Positions 3,404 to 31,406 of a stretch of DNA of 49,514 nt are shown here, one piece after another. How positions within the stretch are numbered: position 1 is the first letter of the stretch; each line of letters opens with the position of its first letter. The notes under the pieces were generated by a model that was given only the letters and a program-made list of their open reading frames with translations, was not told the DNA's origin and searched no databases. Made by a program: the position numbers and the translations under genes. The stretch spans positions 1-49,514 of the forward strand of contig CAMYIZ010000001.1 of assembly GCA_947258585.1 (NCBI GenBank), in the 5' to 3' direction. Source of the DNA: an uncultured Haliea sp. Its GTDB lineage: Bacteria > Pseudomonadota > Gammaproteobacteria > Pseudomonadales > Halieaceae.

Positions 3404-3464
3404 TGGCATAGTGGCATAGTGGCATAGTGGCATAGTGGCATAGTGGCATAGTGGCATAGTGGCA
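3404..3464. repeat. 8-bp tandem repeat (TGGCATAG), about 7.6 copies
   Basis: Seven perfect copies of TGGCATAG run from 3404 to 3459, followed by the partial copy TGGCA. No gene is evident across it. On the minus strand all three frames stay open because eight is not a multiple of three; one frame reads as repeats of MPLCHYAT. It sits beside the transposase remnant. Replication slippage is the likely origin. Confidence 0.95.
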
Positions 3465-5910: not shown

Positions 5911-6288
5911 TTATTCGATGCTGAACCTGCTTCCCACCTTGGTGTAGCCGTCGGCCAGCGTTACCACCACCAGAACAGTTGCGCCTTCAGGCAGGTCAAA
6001 ATCTTCAGCGGCCAGGGTCATGCCGCCGGCTGGCTTGAGTACGGCTTCTGATTGCTCTCCGTCACTGTTCACCGAGAGCTTGCCTGTCATGCCATCGGTT
6101 TCGTAGGGAATCGTATCGTCATATACGTAAACCGTTACTCCTTCGTCGGTATCAACCAGCTCGAAGGTCCAGTCGCCCGAGACCGTCAGCACGCCGCCGT
6201 GTTGAGGATCTGACAGGCCATGGGAGAATGCATAGTTGCAAGACAGCAGTGCAATGCAGAACATTACTGTGGCACGAAATAACTTCAT
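5911..6288 (-). CDS. Small secreted protein of the HupE operon, function unknown
   Basis: A 125-residue protein with a signal peptide (MKLFRATVMFCIALLSCNYAFS). The mature part begins HGLSDPQHGG, so a His is at or near its N-terminus as in DUF4198 proteins, which suggests metal binding. The remainder (WTFELVDTDEGVTVYVYDD, KLSVNSDGEQSEAVLKPAGG, TVLVVVTLADGYTKVGSRF) looks like a compact all-beta domain. It is the first gene of the operon 6288-3628, with GGAG nine bases before the ATG, and ends 33 bases before the hupE-like start. It may deliver metal to, or cap, the importer; that is inference from context only. Confidence 0.72.
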   Translation of the reverse strand: MKLFRATVMFCIALLSCNYAFSHGLSDPQHGGVLTVSGDWTFELVDTDEGVTVYVYDDTIPYETDGMTGKLSVNSDGEQSEAVLKPAGGMTLAAEDFDLPEGATVLVVVTLADGYTKVGSRFSIE

Positions 6289-18740: not shown

Positions 18741-18764
18741 GAGACCGGGAGTCACCCCGGTCTC
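18741..18764. terminator. Bidirectional hairpin between convergent genes
   Basis: GAGACCGGG and CCCGGTCTC form a perfect 9-bp stem around a six-base loop, 30 bases after the cupin stop and overlapping the last codons of the convergent oxidase gene. On the plus strand it is followed by AAATAG rather than a T-run, so termination may be weak or Rho-aided. Confidence 0.42.
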
Positions 18765-20085
18765 AAATAGATCCCAGCTCCAGCCGCGATCCATCCACCA
18801 GGCGAGACAGGCGAAACGGCGTCACATCCGCAAAGGGGGCGTCGTTTGCCACCAGCTGCGCGGCCAGCAGCCCCAGCCCGGGCCCCAGGCCAAAGCCGTG
18901 CCCTGAACAGCCCGCGGCCAGGTAAAAGCCCGCCATGCCGTCCACCGGCGAGATGACCGGCACCGAGTCGGGAGTGCAGTCCACATAACCGCCCCAGGAC
19001 TCCGCGACCTGAATGCCCGCCAGCGCCGGGAACAGTTTCCGCACCCGTTCCAGGGTTTTGGCCACCAAGCGCGGATCCGGCTCGGGATCCAGCACCCGCA
19101 GGTGATCCTGGGCAATCATTTTCTCTCCCTGCCATCCCCCCAGTGCCTCTGGCCCCTCGACAAAGGATTTACCGATGCCGAAGGTCACATTCTTGAAGCG
19201 CTTGATGAACGCGGGCATAAACTCCCGGGTGTAACGCAGGGCCTGGGGTGTGATCTCGATGCGGCCCTTGCCGCTGATGGCCATGGTGTAGCTGCCATCC
19301 ACACGGCGGGTCAGGGTGCAATCCGGCGTGTAAACTGCACCGCCGATGTCCGGCGCCGGGGCCGTGCGCATCGCCGTCTGGCGCACGGAGGCCTGGGGGA
19401 AGCTGACCCCATAGCCACGACAGAAGGACGATGCCCAGGCGCCTGCGGCACACAGGACTGCGTCCGCGCGAATCAGCCCCCGCTCGGTAACAACGCCAGT
19501 GACGGCGCCGTTGGTGACATCGAGCCCCAGCGCCAGGCAATTCTGGTGGATGGTTGCGCCCCGCGCCCGCGCACCCTCCGCGATCAAGGGGGCGGCCAGC
19601 GCCGGTTCCGCCTTGCCATCGTTTACCGAATGGACTCCTCCGAGCCAGGTGCGCCCGCTGGAACCAATCATGGCCGCGGCGTCCTCGCCACTCAGCATGC
19701 GCGAGTCGACGCCAAACTGGCGCGCGACTTCTTGCCAGGCTTCCCATTCCGCCAACTGCGCGGGGTTATCCGTTGCATAGCGCAAGCCACAGCGGCGGAA
19801 TCCCAGGTCATGACCCGTCTCGGTCGTGAGCTCGTCCCACAGCCGCATGGAAACGATGGATACCGGCAACTCCCTGTAGTCACGATTTTGCTGCCGGCAC
19901 CAGCCCCAGTTCCGGCTCGACTGCTCGCCAGCGACCTGCCCCTTCTCGATCACCGCCACCGACAGCCCCTGCCTGGACAGGAAGTAGGCGGCAGTGACAC
20001 CGATGATGCCACCGCCAATCACCACCACATCGGCGCGGGCTGGCAGCACTTCGTCGCTGTGAATCCGGATCAATTGTTTGGACAT
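18763..20085 (-). CDS. FAD-dependent amino-acid oxidase, DAO family
   Basis: A 440-residue flavoenzyme from the ATG at 20085, chosen because AAGGCGG lies just upstream and the preceding 22 in-frame codons have no family similarity. The FAD fold is ADVVVIGGGIIGVTAAYFLS, followed by GQVAGEQSSRNWGWCRQQ, a motif typical of DadA/glycine-oxidase-like proteins in which Cys or His near the flavin is common. The C-terminal block is DSVPVISPVDGMAGFYLAAG with SGHGFGLGPGLG. It probably deaminates a D- or N-alkyl amino acid. A Fur-like sequence lies just upstream and one copy of the 94-bp element about 130 bases upstream, so its expression may respond to both iron and a catabolic signal. Confidence 0.83.
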   Translation of the reverse strand: MSKQLIRIHSDEVLPARADVVVIGGGIIGVTAAYFLSRQGLSVAVIEKGQVAGEQSSRNWGWCRQQNRDYRELPVSIVSMRLWDELTTETGHDLGFRRCGLRYATDNPAQLAEWEAWQEVARQFGVDSRMLSGEDAAAMIGSSGRTWLGGVHSVNDGKAEPALAAPLIAEGARARGATIHQNCLALGLDVTNGAVTGVVTERGLIRADAVLCAAGAWASSFCRGYGVSFPQASVRQTAMRTAPAPDIGGAVYTPDCTLTRRVDGSYTMAISGKGRIEITPQALRYTREFMPAFIKRFKNVTFGIGKSFVEGPEALGGWQGEKMIAQDHLRVLDPEPDPRLVAKTLERVRKLFPALAGIQVAESWGGYVDCTPDSVPVISPVDGMAGFYLAAGCSGHGFGLGPGLGLLAAQLVANDAPFADVTPFRLSRLVDGSRLELGSI

Positions 20086-20119: not shown

Positions 20120-20217
20120 GTGGAAACCGGGACCGGCCTCGACCAAGTCATGGCGATTAGCCCTCGCGGGGTTCACAGGCTCCCGCGGAGAGGGACTGCT
20201 TGCTGATGACTCCGAAC

Positions 20218-20311
20218 AGTCTAGCTGAGGCAGGTTCGCACCCGCTGCCAATTCCCCGATGGCAAAGGCGAGTAATGCCGAAATGGCACGCCATGGCGGC
20301 AGATGCTGCCG
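20218..20311 (-). promoter_or_regulatory. 94-bp conserved upstream element, copy A
   Basis: This aligns without gaps to 24199-24292, 60 of 94 bases identical. The identity is concentrated in blocks: AGTCTAGC, TGCCAATT, AGTA-N-TGCCGAA and CAGATGCTGCCG. On the minus strand the last-read block gives TAGACT, a plausible -10 box, preceded by three (C/T)GGCA boxes spaced 31 and 30 bases. The TAGACT here is about 133 bases before the flavin oxidase ATG (20085). The element may also act on the divergent PLP-enzyme gene. Confidence 0.6.
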
Positions 20312-20392
20312 GGAAATCCGGCGATGCGTGCAACCGGCCAAGGATGCCGTGTTCAGTGAAATGGCGGGTGAAACTACACCATAAACTTACGC

Positions 20393-20421
20393 TTGCGGCG
20401 GGTAATTCAGCACAATATACG
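20393..20421 (+). promoter_or_regulatory. Weak candidate promoter of the PLP enzyme gene
   Basis: TTGCGG (20393-20398) and TATACG (20416-20421) are separated by 17 bases. They match 3 and 4 of 6 sigma-70 positions. Transcription would start near 20428, about 43 bases before the ATG at 20471. Confidence 0.25.
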
Positions 20422-20470
20422 CTCTTTCTGCTGGTACTGTGCCAGTCGTGGTCAACAGGAGTTCACACCC

Positions 20471-21637
20471 ATGAGCAGACAGAGCCCAGCACGGCAGCAC
20501 ACCTTGCACACCCTCGAAACGCCCTGCCTGGTGCTGGATGCGGAGCGCATGGAGCGCAACATACGCCGACTGCGGGAGCGCCTGGCAGAACTTGGCCCGA
20601 GCCTGCGGCCGCACCTCAAGACCGCGAAATCGGTGGAGGTGGCGAGTCGGGTAATGACCAGCGACGCAGGCCCGGCCACCGTGTCAACACTCAAGGAAGC
20701 GGAACAGTTCGCTGCCGCCGGCGTGCACGACCTGATCTATGCGGTGGGCATTGCTCCGGGCAGCAAACTCGAGCGGGTAGCGGCCCTGCGCGCCGGGGGC
20801 ACGGAGCTCTCGATTATCCTCGATACAGTCGAGCAGGCACAGTTTGTTGCGGAGGCCTGCCGCAACTCAGGCGACGCCATCCCGGTCCTGATAGAGATTG
20901 ACTGCGACGGCCACCGCTCGGGAGTGCGGCCAGAGGACAGCCTCACCCTGCTGGAGATCGGTCGCACCCTGCACCAGGGGGGCACCGAGTTGCGCGGTGT
21001 TCTCACCCATGCGGGTGGCAGCTACGCGGCGCGCGGCGCTGCTGCGCTGGAACGCTGTGCCGAGGAAGAGCGAGCCGCTGCGGTCAAGGCCGCGGAAACC
21101 CTGCGCGAGGCGGGCCTGCCCTGCCCGGTCGTCAGCGTTGGCTCCACACCCACGGCGCACTTCGCCCGGGACCTTGCCGGTGTCACCGAGGTAAGGGCTG
21201 GAGTATTCGTGTTCTTCGACCTGGTGATGGCCGGCATCGGTGTCTGCACACTCGACGACATTGCCCTGTCGGTACTCGCCACCGTGATCGGGCATCAGCC
21301 GGAGAAGGGCTGGATTCTCGTGGATGCGGGCTGGATGGCCCTGTCCAGGGACCGGGGCACCGCCAAACAGGACGTCGACCAAGGGTATGGCCTGGTCTGC
21401 GATATCAACGGCAAACCCTACGGTGACCTGATCGTCGCGGACGCCAATCAGGAGCACGGGGTCCTGGCCATGCGGAACGGCGCAGACTCAGCGCTTCCCG
21501 ACCTCCCCATCGGCACCCGAGTCCGGATACTGCCCAATCACGCCTGCGCCACCGGCGCCCAGCATGACCGCTACCATGTTGTCCGCACCGGCTCGGAGAC
21601 AGTTGACGCAGAGTGGCCCCGCTTTGGCGGCTGGTAA
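20471..21637 (+). CDS. PLP-dependent D-threonine aldolase / D-serine dehydratase family enzyme (DSD1 type)
   Basis: A 388-residue fold-type III PLP enzyme, starting at the ATG with AGGAG nine bases upstream. The N-terminal alanine-racemase-like barrel carries the PLP Lys region LRPHLKTAKSVEVA. VSVGSTPTAHFAR and VTEVRAGVFVFFD bind the phosphate. The C-terminal D-serine-dehydratase-like domain has NHACATGAQHDRYHVV, whose His and Cys match the Zn/Mn ligands of eukaryotic-type D-serine dehydratase. Family members cleave D-threonine and other D-3-hydroxy amino acids or dehydrate D-serine and D-threo-3-hydroxyaspartate; which reaction applies is open. It is divergent from a flavin oxidase with a repeated control element between them. 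Confidence 0.85.
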   Translation: MSRQSPARQHTLHTLETPCLVLDAERMERNIRRLRERLAELGPSLRPHLKTAKSVEVASRVMTSDAGPATVSTLKEAEQFAAAGVHDLIYAVGIAPGSKLERVAALRAGGTELSIILDTVEQAQFVAEACRNSGDAIPVLIEIDCDGHRSGVRPEDSLTLLEIGRTLHQGGTELRGVLTHAGGSYAARGAAALERCAEEERAAAVKAAETLREAGLPCPVVSVGSTPTAHFARDLAGVTEVRAGVFVFFDLVMAGIGVCTLDDIALSVLATVIGHQPEKGWILVDAGWMALSRDRGTAKQDVDQGYGLVCDINGKPYGDLIVADANQEHGVLAMRNGADSALPDLPIGTRVRILPNHACATGAQHDRYHVVRTGSETVDAEWPRFGGW

Positions 21638-21699
21638 TGGCTAACGAAAATCGGCGGGAGTGTCGTTGACCACCCGATCGGCTGCCAATTCAGTCGGCC

Positions 21700-22575
21700 T
21701 CAACCCAATGACTGGCTGCAGAGCGCAAACACCCGCGCTCGCTCCGACGGCGGCGGCGCTCCGCGAACCATTTGGGTAGCTGTGTCGACGCAGGCCAGGC
21801 CGCGGGATTCCAGCCAGGGGCCGAGGCCGGAATCCGCGCGGGTGTCCACCCGCACAAAGCCCGTCGGCAGCTGCGACAGAATGCTGTCTATCAGAACGCG
21901 GGCAGCGTCGACATCTGGCGCAATGACGGGGCCAATCACATGCCCCTTGCCGAAAGCCCGGCACGCCGCATAGCCTGTCACGCTGCCGCCGCTGGCGAGC
22001 ACGGTCAACTGTCCGACCTCCGCTATACGCTTGAGCAGCTCAGGCCGGGGCATTCCCAGCGCGGCTTCATCCAACCTGATGATCTCGGTCAGATCGGCAT
22101 CCGCTGCGCTTTTGATATGGGAATCAATGGGTTCCACCAGACCCGGCCGCTCACCAGCGGCCACGAACACGCCCTGATGTTGGTTCAGTGTTCCCGTGGG
22201 AACAAACCCCCGGCGCCGATAGAGTTCCAGTGCCTCGGCGGTGGAATTCAGGAAGATGTTCCTCGGGCCAGCACCGTCCAGGAGTGCGTCGACGAGACGC
22301 GCCCCGTAACCGCGTCCCTTACACTGGGTCGCCACGATTATCATCCCGACACTGGCAAAGGCGCCGCCGTAGTCCCAGCGCATTGCCGTACCGACCAGCT
22401 GACCGTCCTGCTCCAGGGCCAGCCCGTCACCCAGGCTGTGGGCAAACGCCCAGTCTTCCAGCCGGTACGGCCAACCCAGCGCCGATGACAGCGCCAGCGC
22501 CTGCGGCAGATGCGCGACAGTGAGCTTTTTCAACACCGCCCCACTGGTCTCTTCGAACATGGCTTGAGACTCCAT
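21700..22575 (-). CDS. GNAT N-acetyltransferase with two GNAT-like halves
   Basis: A 291-residue protein from the ATG at 22575, with AGGAG seven bases upstream. The first half has the acetyl-CoA-binding pattern GMIIVATQCKGRGYGARLVDALL, close to the GNAT Q/RxxGxG/A motif, and NSTAEALELYRRRGFVPTG. The second half (from about residue 145: YAACRAFGKGHVIGPVIAPD) is a C-terminal acetyltransferase-like domain as in YitH/HolE-type proteins. The substrate is unknown; amine or amino-acid acetylation would fit the M20 deacylase and aldehyde dehydrogenase in the same group. The preceding ALDH gene stops about 100 bases before this start. Confidence 0.78.
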   Translation of the reverse strand: MESQAMFEETSGAVLKKLTVAHLPQALALSSALGWPYRLEDWAFAHSLGDGLALEQDGQLVGTAMRWDYGGAFASVGMIIVATQCKGRGYGARLVDALLDGAGPRNIFLNSTAEALELYRRRGFVPTGTLNQHQGVFVAAGERPGLVEPIDSHIKSAADADLTEIIRLDEAALGMPRPELLKRIAEVGQLTVLASGGSVTGYAACRAFGKGHVIGPVIAPDVDAARVLIDSILSQLPTGFVRVDTRADSGLGPWLESRGLACVDTATQMVRGAPPPSERARVFALCSQSLG

Positions 22576-22676
22576 CTGAGTTCTCCTGACTTCGGTAGTA
22601 TTCGCTGCAGGTAACTGAACCAGGGCTCGGTTCGTTTCTGTCGACGGGACCGTGCCCTGCCACATCCAGCCGACCG

Positions 22677-24131
22677 TCAATCCAGGCCAAGCACCGCCTT
22701 GGTCTCCAGGTATTCATCCAGCCCCTCTACGCCATACTCCCGGCCATTGCCCGATTGCTTGTAGCCTCCGAAAGGCGCATGGGGACTCCAGGCGGGGTGG
22801 TTGACGTGAACCTGGCCACAGCGCAAACGCGCGGCCACATCCCGGATGGTCGCGGTATCCCTGCCCTGGATGTGAGCTGCTAGTCCATACACCGTGTCGT
22901 TGGCCATTTCGACTGCCTGGTCCACGCTGTCATAGGGAATGATGGAGAGCACAGGCCCGAAGATTTCCTCGCGAGCGATAGTCATGTCGGGCGTTACCGC
23001 GGAAAACACCGTGGGACGCACATAATATCCCCGATCCAGGCCTTCCGGCCGGCCGGGGCCACCACAGACCAGCCGGGCGCCCTCGGCGATACCTGTCTCT
23101 ATCATCTTGCACACCCGCTCGAACTGGGCCCGGTTGGCGATGGGCCCATGGGTGCTCGCCTCGGACGCGGGATCGCCGACCACAAACCCGGAAACGGCAT
23201 CCCGGGCCAGCGCCTCCACCTCGGCGAGCTTGTCTCGCGGTACCAACATGCGGGTTGGGGCGCTGCAGGACTGGCCGAGATTGCGGAAACATGCGCCTAC
23301 GCCCAATGGTATGGCCCGGGGAAGATCCGCATCCGGCAGCACAATATTGGCCGACTTGCCGCCCAGTTCCTGGGCCACGCGCTTGACTGTCGTTGCGGCC
23401 GTTTGCGCCACAAGGATGCCGGCGCGCGTGGAGCCGGTGATGGAGACCATATCCACCTCCGGATGGCCGGCCAGGGCGGCGCCCACGCCTTCGCCATTAC
23501 CATTCACCAGATTGAATACACCGGCTGGGATACCGGCCTCGGCGATCACCTCAGCGAACAGCAGCGCGTTCAGGGGTGACAGTTCACTGGGTTTCAAGAC
23601 AACTGTACACCCGACCACCAGGGCGGGGCCGACCTTCGCCGCGATCTGATACAGCGGCCAGTTCCAGGGTGTTATCAGGCCACAAACGCCTATCGGCTCG
23701 CGCAGGACCGATATATCGCCACGACGGCTGACAAAGGGATAACTGCTGGCGTTTTCCATCGCCGCACGCAAGTGCTCTGCTGCGAGAGGCACCTGGGCAC
23801 TGCGGCCGTAGCTTATGGGAGCACCCATCTCCAGGGCCAGGACACTGGCAAACACATCCACCCTCTCGAGGAGCAAACTGTGAACCTTGCCCAGCAGGTG
23901 GATTCGATCTGAAAGCGGAGTCGCGGCCCAGCCGGGAAACGCGCGCCGGGCCGCCGCCACCGCCCTGTCAACATCAGCAGCACTGCCCAGGGTCAGCTCG
24001 GCGACCACTTCCTCCGAAGCCGGATTTACGACTGGAACGTGCCCCGAAGCGTCTGCGTCGCACCATTTCCCATCGATAAAGACCTGATTGAGCCTGGTCG
24101 AATCCAGCAGATTCCCGAGTTTAGAAATCAT
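22677..24131 (-). CDS. Aldehyde dehydrogenase, NAD(P)-dependent
   Basis: A 484-residue ALDH-superfamily enzyme from the ATG at 24131, with AAGGA upstream. Motifs are TPWNWPLYQIAAKVGPAL (cofactor loop with the catalytic Asn), SITGSTRAG, the general base Glu in VAQELGGKSANIV, the catalytic Cys in NLGQSCSAPTRMLV, and EEIFGPVLSI with PFGGYKQSGNGREYG near the C-terminus. It would oxidise an aldehyde made by the amine or amino-acid oxidases or by the aldolase-type PLP enzyme. The second copy of the 94-bp element lies 68-161 bases upstream, so this gene is the most direct candidate target of the shared control. Confidence 0.9.
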   Translation of the reverse strand: MISKLGNLLDSTRLNQVFIDGKWCDADASGHVPVVNPASEEVVAELTLGSAADVDRAVAAARRAFPGWAATPLSDRIHLLGKVHSLLLERVDVFASVLALEMGAPISYGRSAQVPLAAEHLRAAMENASSYPFVSRRGDISVLREPIGVCGLITPWNWPLYQIAAKVGPALVVGCTVVLKPSELSPLNALLFAEVIAEAGIPAGVFNLVNGNGEGVGAALAGHPEVDMVSITGSTRAGILVAQTAATTVKRVAQELGGKSANIVLPDADLPRAIPLGVGACFRNLGQSCSAPTRMLVPRDKLAEVEALARDAVSGFVVGDPASEASTHGPIANRAQFERVCKMIETGIAEGARLVCGGPGRPEGLDRGYYVRPTVFSAVTPDMTIAREEIFGPVLSIIPYDSVDQAVEMANDTVYGLAAHIQGRDTATIRDVAARLRCGQVHVNHPAWSPHAPFGGYKQSGNGREYGVEGLDEYLETKAVLGLD

Positions 24132-24198
24132 GGCAAGTAATCCTTGTTTGTTGAAAGGCGCCCGCGTACGCAGCCTGGTCACCGGTCGCACACGATCA

Positions 24199-24292
24199 AG
24201 TCTAGCGGATGCCTTGTGGCGCTCGTTGCCAATTGCTCAGAAGCGAGAGAAAGTACTGCCGAATAGCGTCGATTCCACAGCAGATGCTGCCG
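24199..24292 (-). promoter_or_regulatory. 94-bp conserved upstream element, copy B
   Basis: Partner of copy A at 20218-20311, in the same orientation relative to the minus-strand gene it precedes. The candidate -10 TAGACT is the complement of 24199-24204, 68 bases before the ALDH start. The upstream boxes CAATTGGCA, TTCGGCA and CGGCAGCATCTG occupy identical positions in both copies, while bases between them differ. That pattern indicates selection on binding sites rather than simple recent duplication. Confidence 0.62.
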
Positions 24293-25704: not shown

Positions 25705-28700
25705 TCATTCGAGCAGCGAATGCCGCCGCCAGAGGTAATACACCACCGGCAGCACCAGCAGCGTCAACACCAGCGCGCTGATCATCCCGCCCACCATGGG
25801 CGCTGCAATCCTGCTCACCACCTCAGCGCCGGTGCCAGAGCTGAGCATGATGGGGAGCAGGCCGGCAATCGTGGACACCGTCGTCATCATCACCGGCCTC
25901 ACACGGAGTCCGGCACCGCGGGCTACCGCGTCGAGCAACTCCCCCTCGAGAGGTTTCTGCCCCCGCTTTTCGCAGGCATCTGCCAGCTCTCTGCAGGATT
26001 GATTGAGATAGGTCAACATGATGATTCCTATCTCCACCGTGACGCCCGCCAGGGCAATGAAGCCGACGGCGACGGCCACCGAGAAATTGTAGTCCAGCAG
26101 ATACATCAGCCAGATGGAACCGATCACAGCCAGGGGAAGCGTGCCGAGAATAATGGCGATTTCGACCAAGTTGCGAAAATTCATGTACAGCAGCACGACG
26201 ATGATGAACAGGGTCAGTGGTACCACATAGGTCAGTTTTTCCGCAGCGCGCAGCATGTATTCGTACTGGCCGGACCAGGACACCGAATAGCCTGCTGGCA
26301 ATTCCAGCTGCTGCCGGACTGTCGCCATGGCCTGCTCAACATAGCTGCCCACGTCCACCCCCTCGATATCCACGAACGTCCAGCCGTTGAGCCTCGCATT
26401 TTCGCTTTTAATCGCGGGTGGCCCATCATCGACGTAGATGGATGCCACGTCGGCGAGAGCAATGCGCTGGCCTCCCGGGGTGACGACAGGCAACAGTGCC
26501 AGCTGCTCTGGCGAATCGCGGTAGTCCTGGGGATAGCGAAGATTGACCGGATAGCGTTCAAGCCCTTCGATTGTCTGGGCCACGTTCGTGCCACCGATGG
26601 CGGTGGCGACCACCTGCTGCACATCCGTGATGTTGAGACCGTAGCGCGCGGCCTTCTCCCTCTGGATATCCACCTTGATGTAGCGCCCACCGGCCACCCG
26701 CTCCGAGTAGACCGAGGCCGTACCCGGGACGCCCTGGAGAATTGTCTCCAATTGCTGGCCGATACGCTGAATCGTCTCCAGGTCCTCGCCGGCAACCTTG
26801 ATACCCACCGGGGTCTTGATGCCCGTGGCGAGCATGTCAATCCGGGTCTTGATGGGCATCACCCAGGCATTGGTCAGTCCCGGAAAATTCACCAGCGCAT
26901 CCAGTTCCTGCTTGAGCTTTGCGGTCGTCATCCCCTCGCGCCACTCCTCCCTCGGCTTGAGCTGAATGAATGTCTCGATCATGGTCAGCGGGGCGGGATC
27001 CGTAGCGGTCTCCGCGCGGCCGATTTTGCCGAACACCGTCTTCACTTCCGGCACGGTCGCGATCAGCTTGTCGGTCTGCTGCAACAATTCCCGCGCCTTG
27101 CCGACAGACAGGCCGGGATAGGTGGTGGGCATGTACATGAGATCACCTTCATCGAGATCCGGGATAAACTCACTGCCGATTTTGTTCACCGGCCAGATGC
27201 CGACCAGAAAAACCAGAACCGCCATCGCCAGGGTAATCCCGGGGAACCGCAAGGCCGCCTGCAGCAGCGGCATATAGCCCGCGATCAACAGCCGGTTTAC
27301 CGGGTTCCTGCTTTCCGCGACCACTTTCCCGCGAATGAAATAGCCCATCAATACGGGTATCACCGTCACCGCAAGAGCCGCGCTGGCAGCCATGGCGTAG
27401 GTCTTGGTGTAGGCCAGCGGGCTGAACATCCGCCCTTCCTGTGCCTCCAGGGTAAACACCGGTAGAAAGCTCACGGTGATGATCAACAGACTGAAGAACA
27501 GCGCCGGCCCCACCTCGGCAGCCGAATCCGCCACCACCTGCCAGCGGTTTGCCGACGTCAGGGGCGTACGCTCCATGTGTTTGTGCATGTTCTCGATCAT
27601 GACGATGGCACCATCAATCATCGCACCGATCGCAATCGCAATACCCCCAAGGGACATGATATTGGCATTGATTCCCTGCCAGTACATCACCGCAAAGGCC
27701 GCCAGTATCCCCAGGGGCAGACTGATGACCGCCACCAGCGACGAGCGGAAATGCAGCAGGAAAATCACACAGATCAGCGCCACGATGGCAAGCTCTTCAA
27801 CCAGGCTCTGCCACAAACTCGCGATCGCCCGGGAAATAAGCCCTGAACGGTCGTAGACAGTGACGATCTCCACCCCATCCGGCAGACCCGCCTGCAGTTG
27901 CTCGAGCCGGGCCTTGACCCCATCGATGGTCTTCTGAGCATTCTCGCCAAAGCGCATCACCACGATGCCGCCAACGACCTCGCCCTCGCCATCGAGCTCG
28001 GCGATACCCCGGCGCATCTGCGGCCCCAGACCGATATCGGCGACGTCCCTGAGCAGCAGGGGCGTGCCCTGGTTGTCAACGCCCAGCGGTATTGACGCGA
28101 GATCCTCGACGCTCTGAATGTAGCCACTGACCCGCACCATGTACTCGGCCTCGGCCATTTCGACCACCGAGGCACCGACCTCCTGATTGCCCCGCTGGAT
28201 GGCGGTCTGGATGTGGGACAGAGGCATGCCCAACGCACGCAGCTTCCCGGGATCCACCTGCACCTGGTACTGCCTGACCATGCCTCCCAGCGCGGCGACC
28301 TCGGAAACCCCCGGGACCGTCTGCAGTTCGTACTTCAGAAACCAGTCCTGGAGGCTGCGCAGCTGGCTCAGGTCATGCTCGCCACTGCGATCCACCAGCG
28401 CATAGAGGTAGACCCAGCCCACACCGGTGGCATCCGGTCCCAGCTGCGGCCGGGCACTGGACGGCAGGTTGGGCGTTACCTGGGAAAGATATTCCAGCAC
28501 CCGCGAGCGGGCCCAGTAGAGGTCGGTATCCTCATCGAAGATTACGTAGACGAAGGAGTCGCCAAAGAACGAGTAGCCCCGCACCGTGACCGCTCCCGGC
28601 ACGGACAACATGGCCGTTGTCAACGGGTAGGTGACCTGGTCCTGTACCACCTGTGGCGCCTGCCCCGGATAATTCGTCTTGATGATTACCTGGACGTCGG

Positions 28701-28827
28701 ACAGGTCAGGAATAGCATCCACCGGGGTATTCTTCAGCGCAAACAGGCCCCCGCCGACCAGTGCCAGGGTGGCCAGCAGAACGAGCAAGCGATTGCCAAT
28801 CGACCAGCGAATGATGGACTCAATCAT
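25705..28827 (-). CDS. cusA: Copper/silver efflux RND permease
   Basis: A 1040-residue heavy-metal RND transporter of the CzcA/CusA group, from ATG 28827, which overlaps the cusB stop by 8 bases. TM4 has GAMIDGAIVMIENMHKHME. The three pore methionines of CusA are preserved in context: LMYMPTTYPG, APLTMIETFIQLKP and RIDMLATGIKTP. This favours monovalent Cu/Ag over Zn/Co/Cd. Twelve membrane helices and two large periplasmic loops are present, and length is normal. It exports metal through CusB and the outer-membrane channel using the proton gradient. No cusF-like chaperone gene follows; the M20 gene begins 183 bases on. Confidence 0.94.
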   Translation of the reverse strand: MIESIIRWSIGNRLLVLLATLALVGGGLFALKNTPVDAIPDLSDVQVIIKTNYPGQAPQVVQDQVTYPLTTAMLSVPGAVTVRGYSFFGDSFVYVIFDEDTDLYWARSRVLEYLSQVTPNLPSSARPQLGPDATGVGWVYLYALVDRSGEHDLSQLRSLQDWFLKYELQTVPGVSEVAALGGMVRQYQVQVDPGKLRALGMPLSHIQTAIQRGNQEVGASVVEMAEAEYMVRVSGYIQSVEDLASIPLGVDNQGTPLLLRDVADIGLGPQMRRGIAELDGEGEVVGGIVVMRFGENAQKTIDGVKARLEQLQAGLPDGVEIVTVYDRSGLISRAIASLWQSLVEELAIVALICVIFLLHFRSSLVAVISLPLGILAAFAVMYWQGINANIMSLGGIAIAIGAMIDGAIVMIENMHKHMERTPLTSANRWQVVADSAAEVGPALFFSLLIITVSFLPVFTLEAQEGRMFSPLAYTKTYAMAASAALAVTVIPVLMGYFIRGKVVAESRNPVNRLLIAGYMPLLQAALRFPGITLAMAVLVFLVGIWPVNKIGSEFIPDLDEGDLMYMPTTYPGLSVGKARELLQQTDKLIATVPEVKTVFGKIGRAETATDPAPLTMIETFIQLKPREEWREGMTTAKLKQELDALVNFPGLTNAWVMPIKTRIDMLATGIKTPVGIKVAGEDLETIQRIGQQLETILQGVPGTASVYSERVAGGRYIKVDIQREKAARYGLNITDVQQVVATAIGGTNVAQTIEGLERYPVNLRYPQDYRDSPEQLALLPVVTPGGQRIALADVASIYVDDGPPAIKSENARLNGWTFVDIEGVDVGSYVEQAMATVRQQLELPAGYSVSWSGQYEYMLRAAEKLTYVVPLTLFIIVVLLYMNFRNLVEIAIILGTLPLAVIGSIWLMYLLDYNFSVAVAVGFIALAGVTVEIGIIMLTYLNQSCRELADACEKRGQKPLEGELLDAVARGAGLRVRPVMMTTVSTIAGLLPIMLSSGTGAEVVSRIAAPMVGGMISALVLTLLVLPVVYYLWRRHSLLE

Positions 28828-30082
28828 GATCGCTCCCACTGTGGTCATGGCCGCCGAACTCGACTGCTTCAGGCTCCGTGTGCGACATGCGCCTGAAATC
28901 CGAGGTCTTGCTGGATTCCGAGTCGATCAGAAACTGGGCTGAGATGACGATGCGCTCGCCCTCGCTGAGGCCCGAGAGTACCTCCGCCTCGCGCTCCCCC
29001 ACCCGTCCCACATCGACGGCAACGGACTTGAAGCTGCCATCCCCCCGGGCCAGAACCACCCGGGACTGATTGCCGGTGCGGATCAGCGCCTCCCGCGGAA
29101 TCAGCAGGACTTCGGCACCCGGTTCAGTGTCGATGATCATTTGCGCGAACATGCCCGGTTTCAGTGCACCGTCCAGATTGCCCAGTCGGACCCGAATCTG
29201 CAGGGTGCGGATCTGCTCGTTCAGCGAGGGGTAGACGTAGTCGACCTGGCCCCGGAAATCCCTGCCGGAGAGATAGTCCAGCTGCAAACGCACCTTGTCC
29301 CCAACCTTGACCTGGCTGGCCTGACGCTCGAAGATTTCTCCAATAACCCAGAGGTGCTCCAGCTGACCTATCGCCATCAGGCTGGAGCCCGGTTGCACGA
29401 ACATCCCTTCACGCACCGCGAGAGTGTCGACGACGCCGGACTGCGGTGCGGTGAAGGTGACTGTCCGGCTGACCTTGCCGGTTCGCCGCAAATGCTCGAC
29501 AGCCGCCTGCGGCATCTGCAACGCCGACAACCGCTCCCGAGCGGCGCCGATCAGCATCTCGTTGCCCCGCTCCAATGCCAGCAGGAACTCTTCCTGGGCG
29601 TTGACCAGCGTCGGCGAGTACAGCGTGAACAGCGGTTTACCTTGCGTGACAGGATCACCGGCCGCCTGGACGTGCAGTGTTTCCAGCCAGCCTGCCACGC
29701 GCGGGCTGATGTTCAGCAATCGGTCCTCGTCGTACTGCACATAACCTACAGTTTTCACAACCCGCTGCAGGCGGCCGGATTCGACCCTGGCGGTGCGCAC
29801 GCCCAGATTGTTGACGACATCCGGCGCAATGCGGACCGAGCCTGCTTCGCTCCCCCCGCTCTCCTCCTCGTAAACCGGGATCAAATCCATGCCCATGGGC
29901 GATTTTCCTGGCCGGTCCCGCCGGTAGTTCGGATCCATCGGCGCCACCCAGTAAAGAGGCTGGCCTGCACCGTCGGTCGCAGAGACACTGACGGCCCGTG
30001 TGTTGCCCAGCAACCACACGCCACCGGCGCCGAACAGTACACCGCAAGCGGCGACCAGCCAGGTCCTGGTAAATGTCTTCAT
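28820..30082 (-). CDS. cusB: RND efflux periplasmic adaptor
   Basis: A 420-residue membrane-fusion protein from ATG 30082, with GAGG just upstream. An N-terminal membrane helix/signal (TWLVAACGVLFGAGGVWLL) is followed by a heavy-metal-binding segment, YWVAPMDPNYRRDRPGK with SPMGMDLIPVYEEE, typical of CusB-type adaptors with Met ligands. Then come barrel-sandwich and beta-barrel domains (GYVQYDEDRLLNISPRVAGW, FTAPQSGVVDTLAVREGMFV). The C-terminus ends in a His-rich tail (HTEPEAVEFGGHDHSGSDHD). It bridges CusA to the outer-membrane channel and hands over periplasmic metal. It starts 10 bases after the stop of the upstream channel gene. Confidence 0.92.
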   Translation of the reverse strand: MKTFTRTWLVAACGVLFGAGGVWLLGNTRAVSVSATDGAGQPLYWVAPMDPNYRRDRPGKSPMGMDLIPVYEEESGGSEAGSVRIAPDVVNNLGVRTARVESGRLQRVVKTVGYVQYDEDRLLNISPRVAGWLETLHVQAAGDPVTQGKPLFTLYSPTLVNAQEEFLLALERGNEMLIGAARERLSALQMPQAAVEHLRRTGKVSRTVTFTAPQSGVVDTLAVREGMFVQPGSSLMAIGQLEHLWVIGEIFERQASQVKVGDKVRLQLDYLSGRDFRGQVDYVYPSLNEQIRTLQIRVRLGNLDGALKPGMFAQMIIDTEPGAEVLLIPREALIRTGNQSRVVLARGDGSFKSVAVDVGRVGEREAEVLSGLSEGERIVISAQFLIDSESSKTSDFRRMSHTEPEAVEFGGHDHSGSDHD

Positions 30083-30092
30083 GGTCATCACC

Positions 30093-31406
30093 TCAGAAGT
30101 CCTCCGCGGGCTGCACGACGACAGAGGACGGCCGCGCCAGCAGATAGTTGATTTGAGCAATGGTCTTCTGCCGCTGCACCGCGATGACCAGTGCCTCCAG
30201 CCTGGCGTTCAACTCGCCGATACGCGCACGCACCGCCTCGGCGAAGTCGCCGACGTCGTTGTTGTAAGCGGCCAGGGAAGATTCCGCCAGCTCCGCCATC
30301 TGTGGCAACAGCTGCTCGGTGTACAGGGCCTGACGCTGGTCGAGGCGCGACAGGACGCGACTGGCCATCTCCAGTTCTGCCGTCAACCGGCGCACCAACA
30401 ACTGCCTCTCGGTCCTGATCGCCTCGGCATGACCAATGGCGGCGCTGACTTCCCGGTCCTGCCGGTCGGCGGTAAAAATCGGCAGGTCGAAGCTAAGGCC
30501 AATTGAAAATAGATCTGCCCTGTCGCGCCCCGCCAGATCACTGTCGCGGTAGCCATATTGGGCATTGAGCCCCCACTCCGGCTTGAATTTCTGTCGCGCG
30601 AGATCGACCCCGGTTGCCTTCGCTGCAATCTGCTTGTCCAGGGCCAGCAGCGCGGGATGTTGGCTAATACGCTGGTATCGCTCCTGCCCTGAAGCCTGGA
30701 GCTCTACCGGCGCCGCGGGTGAATCCACCGGCAGCTCCGCCGCGATCACCGAACCGGCGTGGGAGCCAATCCATTCCGCCAAACGTATCTGCGCTGTTTC
30801 CTGCTGTTGCCTTAACGTGGTCAGGCGATCCTCCAGCTGCGTCAACTCCAGCTGGGCGCGAATCACGTCCTGCTGCCGCACACCCGCCACAGCGGTCGCG
30901 TAGCCGGCCCGGGCCGCGTCGAGCAGATTGTCAAACAGGGCCCGGTCTGCCTCGATCAGCCGGATACTTTCCTGGGCCGTGTAGGCGTCCAGCCACAGCT
31001 GCGCGACCGTTGCCGCCACTTTGGCCCGGCGGTCATCCCGCAACAGGGGCTGCTGTCGCGAGAGCTGCAGTTTCCTGCGTTTCGCGAGCGCGAGCGTATC
31101 TCCCCGCGGGAACATCTGGCTGATACCCACGGCCAGCTGGGTCATGGGCTCCTGATTGATATCGAAACTGTCGACCGGGAAGTTGCCGGCCGTCAGGCTC
31201 ACCCTGGGGTCCGGCAGGGTAGCGGCAGCCGTCGCCTCGTCTGCGAGGGCTGCCTGCGTATACTGGCTCGCGGTCAGCCAGGGATCGGACGCGATGGCCA
31301 GCGCCACTGCCTCACGCAGCGTCAAGTCCCCGCTGGAAGCCTGAGCCCTGCCGCATGCACTGGCGGTGCCCAGCATGAGGCAGAACAGGTATAGGAATAC
31401 TTTCAT
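30093..31406 (-). CDS. cusC: TolC-family outer-membrane efflux channel
   Basis: A 437-residue outer-membrane factor with a signal peptide (MKVFLYLFCLMLGTASACG). It has the duplicated TolC coiled-coil pattern: LREAVALAIASDPWLTAS and LPDPRVSLTAGNFP in the first half, HPALLALDKQIAAKATGVDLA and LSFDLPIFTADRQDREVSAA in the second. These spacings are those of CusC/CzcC-type channels. A Cys at the end of the signal might be lipidated, but the lipobox is poor. It is the first gene of cusCBA and lies 126 bases after the small Cys/His-rich protein gene. Confidence 0.88.
   Translation of the reverse strand: MKVFLYLFCLMLGTASACGRAQASSGDLTLREAVALAIASDPWLTASQYTQAALADEATAAATLPDPRVSLTAGNFPVDSFDINQEPMTQLAVGISQMFPRGDTLALAKRRKLQLSRQQPLLRDDRRAKVAATVAQLWLDAYTAQESIRLIEADRALFDNLLDAARAGYATAVAGVRQQDVIRAQLELTQLEDRLTTLRQQQETAQIRLAEWIGSHAGSVIAAELPVDSPAAPVELQASGQERYQRISQHPALLALDKQIAAKATGVDLARQKFKPEWGLNAQYGYRDSDLAGRDRADLFSIGLSFDLPIFTADRQDREVSAAIGHAEAIRTERQLLVRRLTAELEMASRVLSRLDQRQALYTEQLLPQMAELAESSLAAYNNDVGDFAEAVRARIGELNARLEALVIAVQRQKTIAQINYLLARPSSVVVQPAEDF

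What the first reader, a model, noticed from the sequence alone, without database searches (positions are those of the whole stretch)
20218..24292. Two 94-bp copies of the same upstream element in a catabolic locus
20218-20311 and 24199-24292 align over exactly 94 bases with no gap and 60 identities. The identity is clustered (AGTCTAGC, TGCCAATT, AGTA-N-TGCCGAA, CAGATGCTGCCG) and the bases between blocks differ. One copy lies between a flavin oxidase gene and a PLP-enzyme gene, the other just upstream of an aldehyde dehydrogenase gene. Equal spacing with diverged linkers suggests a conserved multi-site promoter/operator for a regulator not encoded in this window.
Basis: seen in the sequence. 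Interest (0 to 1): 0.75.

Follow-up and report, generated by a model that had tools for sequence, protein, structure and literature searches.

The report
Paired promoter element in catabolic cluster
Two genes of one nutrient-breakdown cluster in a bacterium carry the same 94-base stretch in front of them, most likely a shared on/off switch for one still unidentified regulator; that is an ordinary arrangement, although this particular switch was not found in the other genomes searched.

Summary
Window 20218-20311 and 24199-24292 match at 60 of 94 positions without a gap, far above shuffled sequence. Both copies face the minus strand, one upstream of the FAD-oxidase gene, the other upstream of the aldehyde-dehydrogenase gene. 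Four blocks hold identities at 40 of 41 positions, the linkers at 20 of 53. The genome assembly holds just these two full copies. No credible copy appeared in 140 family genomes, 369 class genomes or 80 loci with a related BhcC gene. So it is no dispersed repeat, but also no demonstrated regulon beyond two genes. Best reading: two promoters of one pathway sharing operator sites, probably for an activator encoded elsewhere. One outside hint: the outermost block is a dyad, CGGCAG-N3-CTGCCG, and the same dyad lies upstream of the orthologous gene run in two Litchfieldella species. The LysR gene beside this cluster in many alpha/betaproteobacteria is not the answer: this genome lacks a close copy, and the LysR loci share a different upstream sequence. 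RNA structure is not supported. The regulator, direction of control and transcript starts are untested.

The parts
20218..20311 (-). copy 1 of the element, upstream of the FAD-oxidase gene
   Evidence: 60/94 identities to copy 2
24199..24292 (-). copy 2 of the element, upstream of the aldehyde-dehydrogenase gene
20297..20311 (-). block A, perfect dyad CGGCAG-CAT-CTGCCG
   Evidence: same dyad with another spacer in Litchfieldella loci L074 and L075
24278..24292 (-). block A, dyad with one change (CGGCAG-CAT-CTGCTG)
20271..20282 (-). block B TTCGGCANTACT
24252..24263 (-). block B TTCGGCANTACT
20246..20253 (-). block C AATTGGCA
24227..24234 (-). block C AATTGGCA
20218..20225 (-). block D GCTAGACT; TAGACT proposed as -10 hexamer (inference)
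   Evidence: the sigma-70 scan of 18-26 kb found no promoter
24199..24206 (-). block D GCTAGACT; TAGACT proposed as -10 hexamer (inference)
18763..20085 (-). FAD-dependent oxidase (DAO family), likely start 20085; alternative in-frame start 20151
   Evidence: Pfam DAO; ORFs of homologues in L072, L075 and L134 start at the matching place
22677..24131 (-). aldehyde dehydrogenase
   Evidence: Pfam Aldedh; Litchfieldella homologue 68% over residues 1-484
20471..21637 (+). PLP enzyme related to 3-hydroxy-D-aspartate aldolase BhcC (below that model's cut-off), divergent from the oxidase gene
   Evidence: 79% identical in Litchfieldella

Best explanation
The element is a promoter with attached operator sites, present once in front of the FAD-oxidase gene and once in front of the aldehyde-dehydrogenase gene, so that one trans-acting regulator controls both steps together. 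Reading towards the genes, block D (GCTAGACT) would hold the -10 hexamer, block C (AATTGGCA) would lie over the -35 position, and blocks B and A would lie near -65 and -94. The GGCA shared at positions 2, 33 and 63 recurs every 30-31 bases, about three helical turns, so the sites would face one side of the DNA. The lack of a -35 hexamer at normal spacing suggests an activator. Shown: the sequence, orientation, positions, uniqueness in the assembly, and the block-versus-linker contrast. Inferred: promoter function, the -10 assignment, phasing, activation, and a single regulator.
For: 60/94 match far above shuffles, with background flanks. Both copies face genes of one cluster, copy 2 67 bases from the ALDH start and copy 1 132 bases from the likely oxidase start, or 66 from the alternative start (arithmetic). 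Best-four-window test, 0 of 300 permutations. Just two full copies in the 4.19-Mb assembly. GGCA at 2, 33 and 63 in both copies. The dyad CGGCAG-N3-CTGCCG occurs exactly 3 times in the 1.58 Mb of the 80 loci, two of them upstream of HAD in two Litchfieldella species. Seven genes of the cluster recur together in both Litchfieldella loci.
Against: Two copies in one genome; no such element found elsewhere. The sigma-70 scan finds no promoter, so the -10 call rests on TAGACT alone. Number-of-runs test for clustering is weak (P 0.10). The Litchfieldella dyad was noticed after the fact, the two species are related, blocks B-D are not there, and in L074 a mechanical ORF of the divergent GNAT gene covers it. 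Dyads with up to one mismatch are not clearly enriched: 52 against 41 for a control dyad in the 80 loci, 144 against 94 for the reversed pattern in this genome. Of the 5 perfect dyads of this genome outside the window, 4 lie inside an ORF of 388 aa or more.
Confidence: 0.68

Rival explanations
1. Remnant of an old duplication: when the cluster was assembled, an upstream segment was copied in front of a second gene and has decayed; the copies need not share a living regulator.
For: Identity of 64% over a gap-free 94 bases and a mixed outcome of the clustering tests; the gene order differs in Litchfieldella, where ALDH follows DAO directly.
Against: Linkers are near background (20 of 53) while blocks are nearly unchanged, and the two ends are among the best conserved parts; no indels.
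Confidence: 0.17
2. A structured 5' leader RNA (riboswitch-like or attenuator) shared by the two transcripts.
For: RNAalifold gives 20 pairs, 2 with changes on both sides, and hairpin A keeps a pair through a G-C to G-U change.
Against: No Rfam hit in 18-26 kb at E up to 1; folding energies no better than shuffles, z -0.60 and 0.75 on the minus strand, -0.13 and 1.59 on the plus strand; the two minimum-energy folds differ; with two sequences covariation means little.
Confidence: 0.06
3. A mobile or recombination sequence (transposon end, resolvase site, attC, REP-like element).
For: Conserved ends with a diverged middle; the cluster is patchy, with a BhcC match in 5 of 140 family genomes and in none of the 7 genus mates.
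Against: No further copy in the genome and no match of either upstream region in the plasmid collection; direct, not inverted, orientation; no terminal inverted repeat seen by eye; no recombinase among the 41 ORFs scanned.
Confidence: 0.04

Closest known systems
LysR-type regulator operators (recognition and activation sites)
   Same: Several sites upstream of an activator-dependent promoter (passages of PMC11739112 on recognition and activation sites; their usual positions are recalled). A related LysR gene is present in 37 of the 80 loci by grouping, often next to BhcC or ALDH.
   Different: The LysR loci share another upstream sequence (CATTAA..CTTAA..TTAATT; 15 of 23 stretches by a regular expression that I wrote after seeing them; 23 of 36 such loci were taken), which is absent from the window. 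Best LysR match to that protein in this genome is 31% identical. One T-N11-A is conserved in the element (positions 47-59, by eye), without a dyad around it.
MocR-subfamily (GntR/aminotransferase) operators
   Same: PMC5320631 (passages) gives two direct boxes plus one inverted repeat as the commonest MocR motif structure (32% of studied regulons); the element has GGCA direct boxes in both copies and, in copy 1, a TGCC inverted box. This genome encodes two MocR-type proteins.
   Different: Both genes are on other contigs and nothing ties them to this cluster; neither reaches a curated NCBIfam cut-off, one only just missing PdxR (317.6 against 320); CGGCA, TGCCG and TTGGCA were not found in that paper's main text.
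Sigma-70 activator-dependent promoters
   Same: A TAnAnT hexamer (TAGACT) at the gene-proximal end and no -35 hexamer at 16-18 bases (by eye).
   Different: No consensus promoter found by the scan.

Membership tests
LysR-type operator of the cluster's own LysR | Orthologous LysR encoded in the genome | tested here: not met
   Best match 31% identity, against 46.6-100% for 36 of the 38 hits in the 80 loci, query included; assembly about 96% complete, so a missing gene is not excluded
LysR-type operator of the cluster's own LysR | Conserved CATTAA/CTTAA/TTAATT upstream sequence | tested here: not met
   Regular expression fits 15 of 23 stretches, neither window strand
LysR-type operator in general | T-N11-A within a dyad | tested here: inconclusive
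   One conserved T-N11-A by eye, no surrounding dyad
MocR operator | Direct boxes, often with an inverted box | tested here: inconclusive
   GGCA at 2, 33, 63 in both copies; TGCC at 11 in copy 1 only
MocR operator | MocR protein encoded near the sites | tested here: not met
   Two MocR-type genes, on contigs C74 and C36, not on the window contig
Sigma-70 promoter | -35 and -10 hexamers at 16-18 spacing | tested here: not met
   0 found on either strand of 18-26 kb; shuffles mean 1.7
Structured RNA leader | Match to a known family or excess folding stability | tested here: not met
Dispersed repeat | Copies at unrelated sites | tested here: not met
   2 copies in the assembly
Operator of one regulator | Binding of a named protein | not testable with these tools
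   needs a DNA-binding experiment

The most novel reading that the evidence does not exclude
A lineage-private, rigid multi-site promoter module of about 94 bases, with sites in helical phase, fitted onto two genes of a laterally acquired catabolic cluster by a resident regulator of unknown family that recognises CGGCAG-N3-CTGCCG, in place of the LysR control that seems to serve the same genes in many alpha- and betaproteobacteria.
Probability: 0.2. Interest if true: 0.45.

Novelty: new member of a known kind. Interest (0 to 1): 0.27.

Why it matters
If right, it gives a ready bait for finding the regulator of a widespread gene set (FAD oxidase, BhcC-like PLP enzyme, aldehyde dehydrogenase) whose substrate I could not name, and a case of one gene set placed under different regulators in different lineages. 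As a mechanism, co-regulated promoters sharing operator sites are ordinary.

Tried and rejected
Whole-genome copy search by pattern and by a two-sequence profile: only a weak third place, 13.2 bits, E 0.35, model positions 1-46 on contig C30; its sequence was printed but not followed further. Family search, 140 genomes with own included, 2 mismatches: 8 places in 7 other genomes against 5 places in 5 genomes for the reversed control pattern, taken as chance. Class search, 369 genomes with own included, under stricter filters: 3 other genomes, E 0.0013-0.0026 per genome; the L157 and L158 matches lie inside ORFs; L159, of the same genus as L158, was only looked at as sequence. Plasmid searches with both upstream regions: no match.

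Local alignment of nine other upstream regions of the window with each copy, 18 comparisons: two at P of 0.01 or less. One is the oxidase/BhcC intergenic stretch against copy 1, which is copy 1 meeting its own reverse complement; the other (upstream of ORF 5911-6288 against copy 2, P 0.010) is within what 18 tests can give. A HAD-upstream resemblance seen by eye gave P 0.065. Sigma-54 spacing was checked by eye and does not fit (GG-N8-GC instead of GG-N10-GC; consensus recalled). Comparing the Litchfieldella oxidase and HAD upstreams with each other gave no shared element (P 0.52 and 0.08).

Oxidase homologues in 390 genomes of the order: one at 69% (Litchfieldella, G330), the rest at 49% or less; 464 bases upstream of it were read and show no element. 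ALDH in 58 relatives: 57% or less outside the window (list cut). Papers: four searches. One search, with the motif letters, listed two papers that I did not open, on the gene set, listed none. Passages only were read in PMC11739112, PMC5320631 and PMC4494728.

Full report
What is there. The two stretches 20218-20311 and 24199-24292 align over 94 bases without a gap, 60 identical. Read on the minus strand the consensus is CGGCAGCATCTGC-N-G ... TTCGGCANTACT ... AATTGGCA ... GCTAGACT. Scored at +5/-4 the match reaches 164; 100 dinucleotide shuffles of 18-26 kb had a best of 133. Outside the 94 bases, identity is 29 of 100 and 19 of 67, so the element has sharp edges. Four blocks have identities at 40 of 41 positions, linkers at 20 of 53, and a permutation test that re-picks the best four windows gave 0 of 300 as high. 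Other clustering tests were weaker: sum of squared runs P 0.018, number of runs P 0.10, longest run P 0.06.

Where it sits. Both copies point at minus-strand genes. Copy 1 is 132 bases upstream of the likely start of the FAD oxidase (20085; ORFs of homologues in two Litchfieldella loci and in Aestuariibacter start at the matching place), or 66 from an in-frame ATG at 20151. Copy 2 is 67 bases upstream of the aldehyde dehydrogenase start at 24131. The BhcC-like PLP gene (20471-21637) runs away from copy 1 on the plus strand. Around them lie a GNAT protein, an M20 amidohydrolase, a type II haloacid-dehalogenase-like protein, a second DAO oxidase, a peptide-type ABC transporter, an oxidoreductase pair and an aspartate ammonia-lyase. 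None of the 41 window ORFs that I gave to Pfam (of 138 listed at 100 aa or more, many overlapping others on the opposite strand) matched a DNA-binding regulator domain at the thresholds used, 1e-3 or 1e-5.

How far it spreads. In the 4,194,826-base assembly the core pattern with up to 3 mismatches occurs at these two places only, control 0; the profile gives two matches at E near 1e-24 and one at 0.35. In 140 family genomes, 8 places in 7 other genomes at 2 mismatches compare with 5 for the control pattern. In 369 class genomes 3 others match weakly; the two that I examined with ORFs lie within ORFs. Stretches around the BhcC relatives of G159, G010 and G065 do not hold it either, best 33 of 60. 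The cluster is patchy in the family: BhcC matches at E 1e-80 or better in 5 of 140 genomes, own included, and in none of 7 genus mates. Contig G159:C11 has the length of the Parahaliea mediterranea contig (1,309,432) and G159 is ranked in the same family as the window, so the window would belong to Halieaceae or its GTDB counterpart.

Outside evidence. The orthologous gene set recurs in Litchfieldella qijiaojingensis (L074, contig length equal to that of G330:C18) and L. anticariensis (L075): oxidase 66-68%, BhcC 77-78%, ALDH 66-67%, DAO 57%, M20 64-65%, GNAT 57-59%, HAD 64-67%. There HAD, GNAT, M20, DAO and ALDH follow each other on one strand, and ALDH directly follows DAO; that they form one operon is inference. 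The HAD upstream region of both species contains CGGCAGTTTCTGCCG, the dyad of block A of copy 1 with another spacer. In L074 a mechanical ORF of the divergent GNAT gene, from a TTG start, covers the dyad, although homology to GNAT starts about 250 bases further on; in L075 the dyad is intergenic. Exact dyads occur 3 times in the 1,576,913 bases of the 80 loci, the third inside an ORF of L148, so a chance hit in a given 400-base upstream region is expected about 8 times in 10,000; this was not a pre-set test, and two upstream regions per species were looked at. Blocks B, C and D were not found there. Against specificity: with up to one mismatch the dyad occurs 52 times in the 80 loci against 41 for a control dyad, and 144 against 94 in this genome. 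Of 6 perfect dyads in this genome, one is in copy 1; of the other 5, 4 lie inside an ORF of 388 aa or more and 1 in none of the longest ORFs.

Regulator. A LysR protein stands near this cluster in many alpha- and betaproteobacteria: 37 of 80 loci by grouping; a search with one member lists 38 hits, 36 of them 46.6% identical or more (query included), one 36% and one 28%. The best match in this genome is 31%. The LysR upstream stretches share a CATTAA..CTTAA..TTAATT arrangement in 15 of 23, by a regular expression that I wrote after seeing them and on 23 of the 36 loci; it does not occur in the window. The genome encodes six GntR-type domains, two of them in MocR-type proteins on other contigs. 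MocR operators often combine direct and inverted boxes (PMC5320631, passages), as the element might, but nothing ties either protein to it.

Function. I read the element as two activator-dependent promoters of one pathway with shared operators. Shown are sequence, orientation, uniqueness in the assembly and the contrast of blocks and linkers. Inferred are promoter function, the -10 hexamer, phasing and activation. The sigma-70 scan found nothing in 18-26 kb, which fits a promoter that needs an activator but equally fits no promoter. RNA structure lacks support; the two-sequence consensus fold cannot carry weight. Co-regulated promoters with shared operators are a known kind, so interest is modest; the unusual points are length, rigid spacing and absence from the other genomes searched.

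Noticed in passing
window 3404-3464: Perfect tandem array of 7.6 copies of the 8-base unit TGGCATAG, between a DUF4198 gene and a TonB-dependent receptor gene; could vary in length.
   Followed up: no
L101, L105, L098, L082, L077 and others, upstream of a LysR gene that is divergent from BhcC or ALDH: A LysR gene accompanies the BhcC/ALDH cluster in many alpha- and betaproteobacteria, with a shared CATTAA..CTTAA..TTAATT sequence upstream that looks like its operator.
   Followed up: partly
L074:11089-11103 and L075:19449-19463: Perfect dyad CGGCAG-N3-CTGCCG between HAD and a divergent GNAT gene in two Litchfieldella species; in L074 a mechanical GNAT ORF with a TTG start covers it.
   Followed up: partly
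L191 (G065:C44:12001-32000): A gene set in a family member with ABC transporter (67%), permease (69%), M20 (73%), oxidoreductase pair (52%, 59%) and a BhcC relative (53%), without the element.
   Followed up: no
window 25705-31406: CusA/CusB/TolC-like heavy-metal efflux genes directly beside the catabolic cluster.
   Followed up: no
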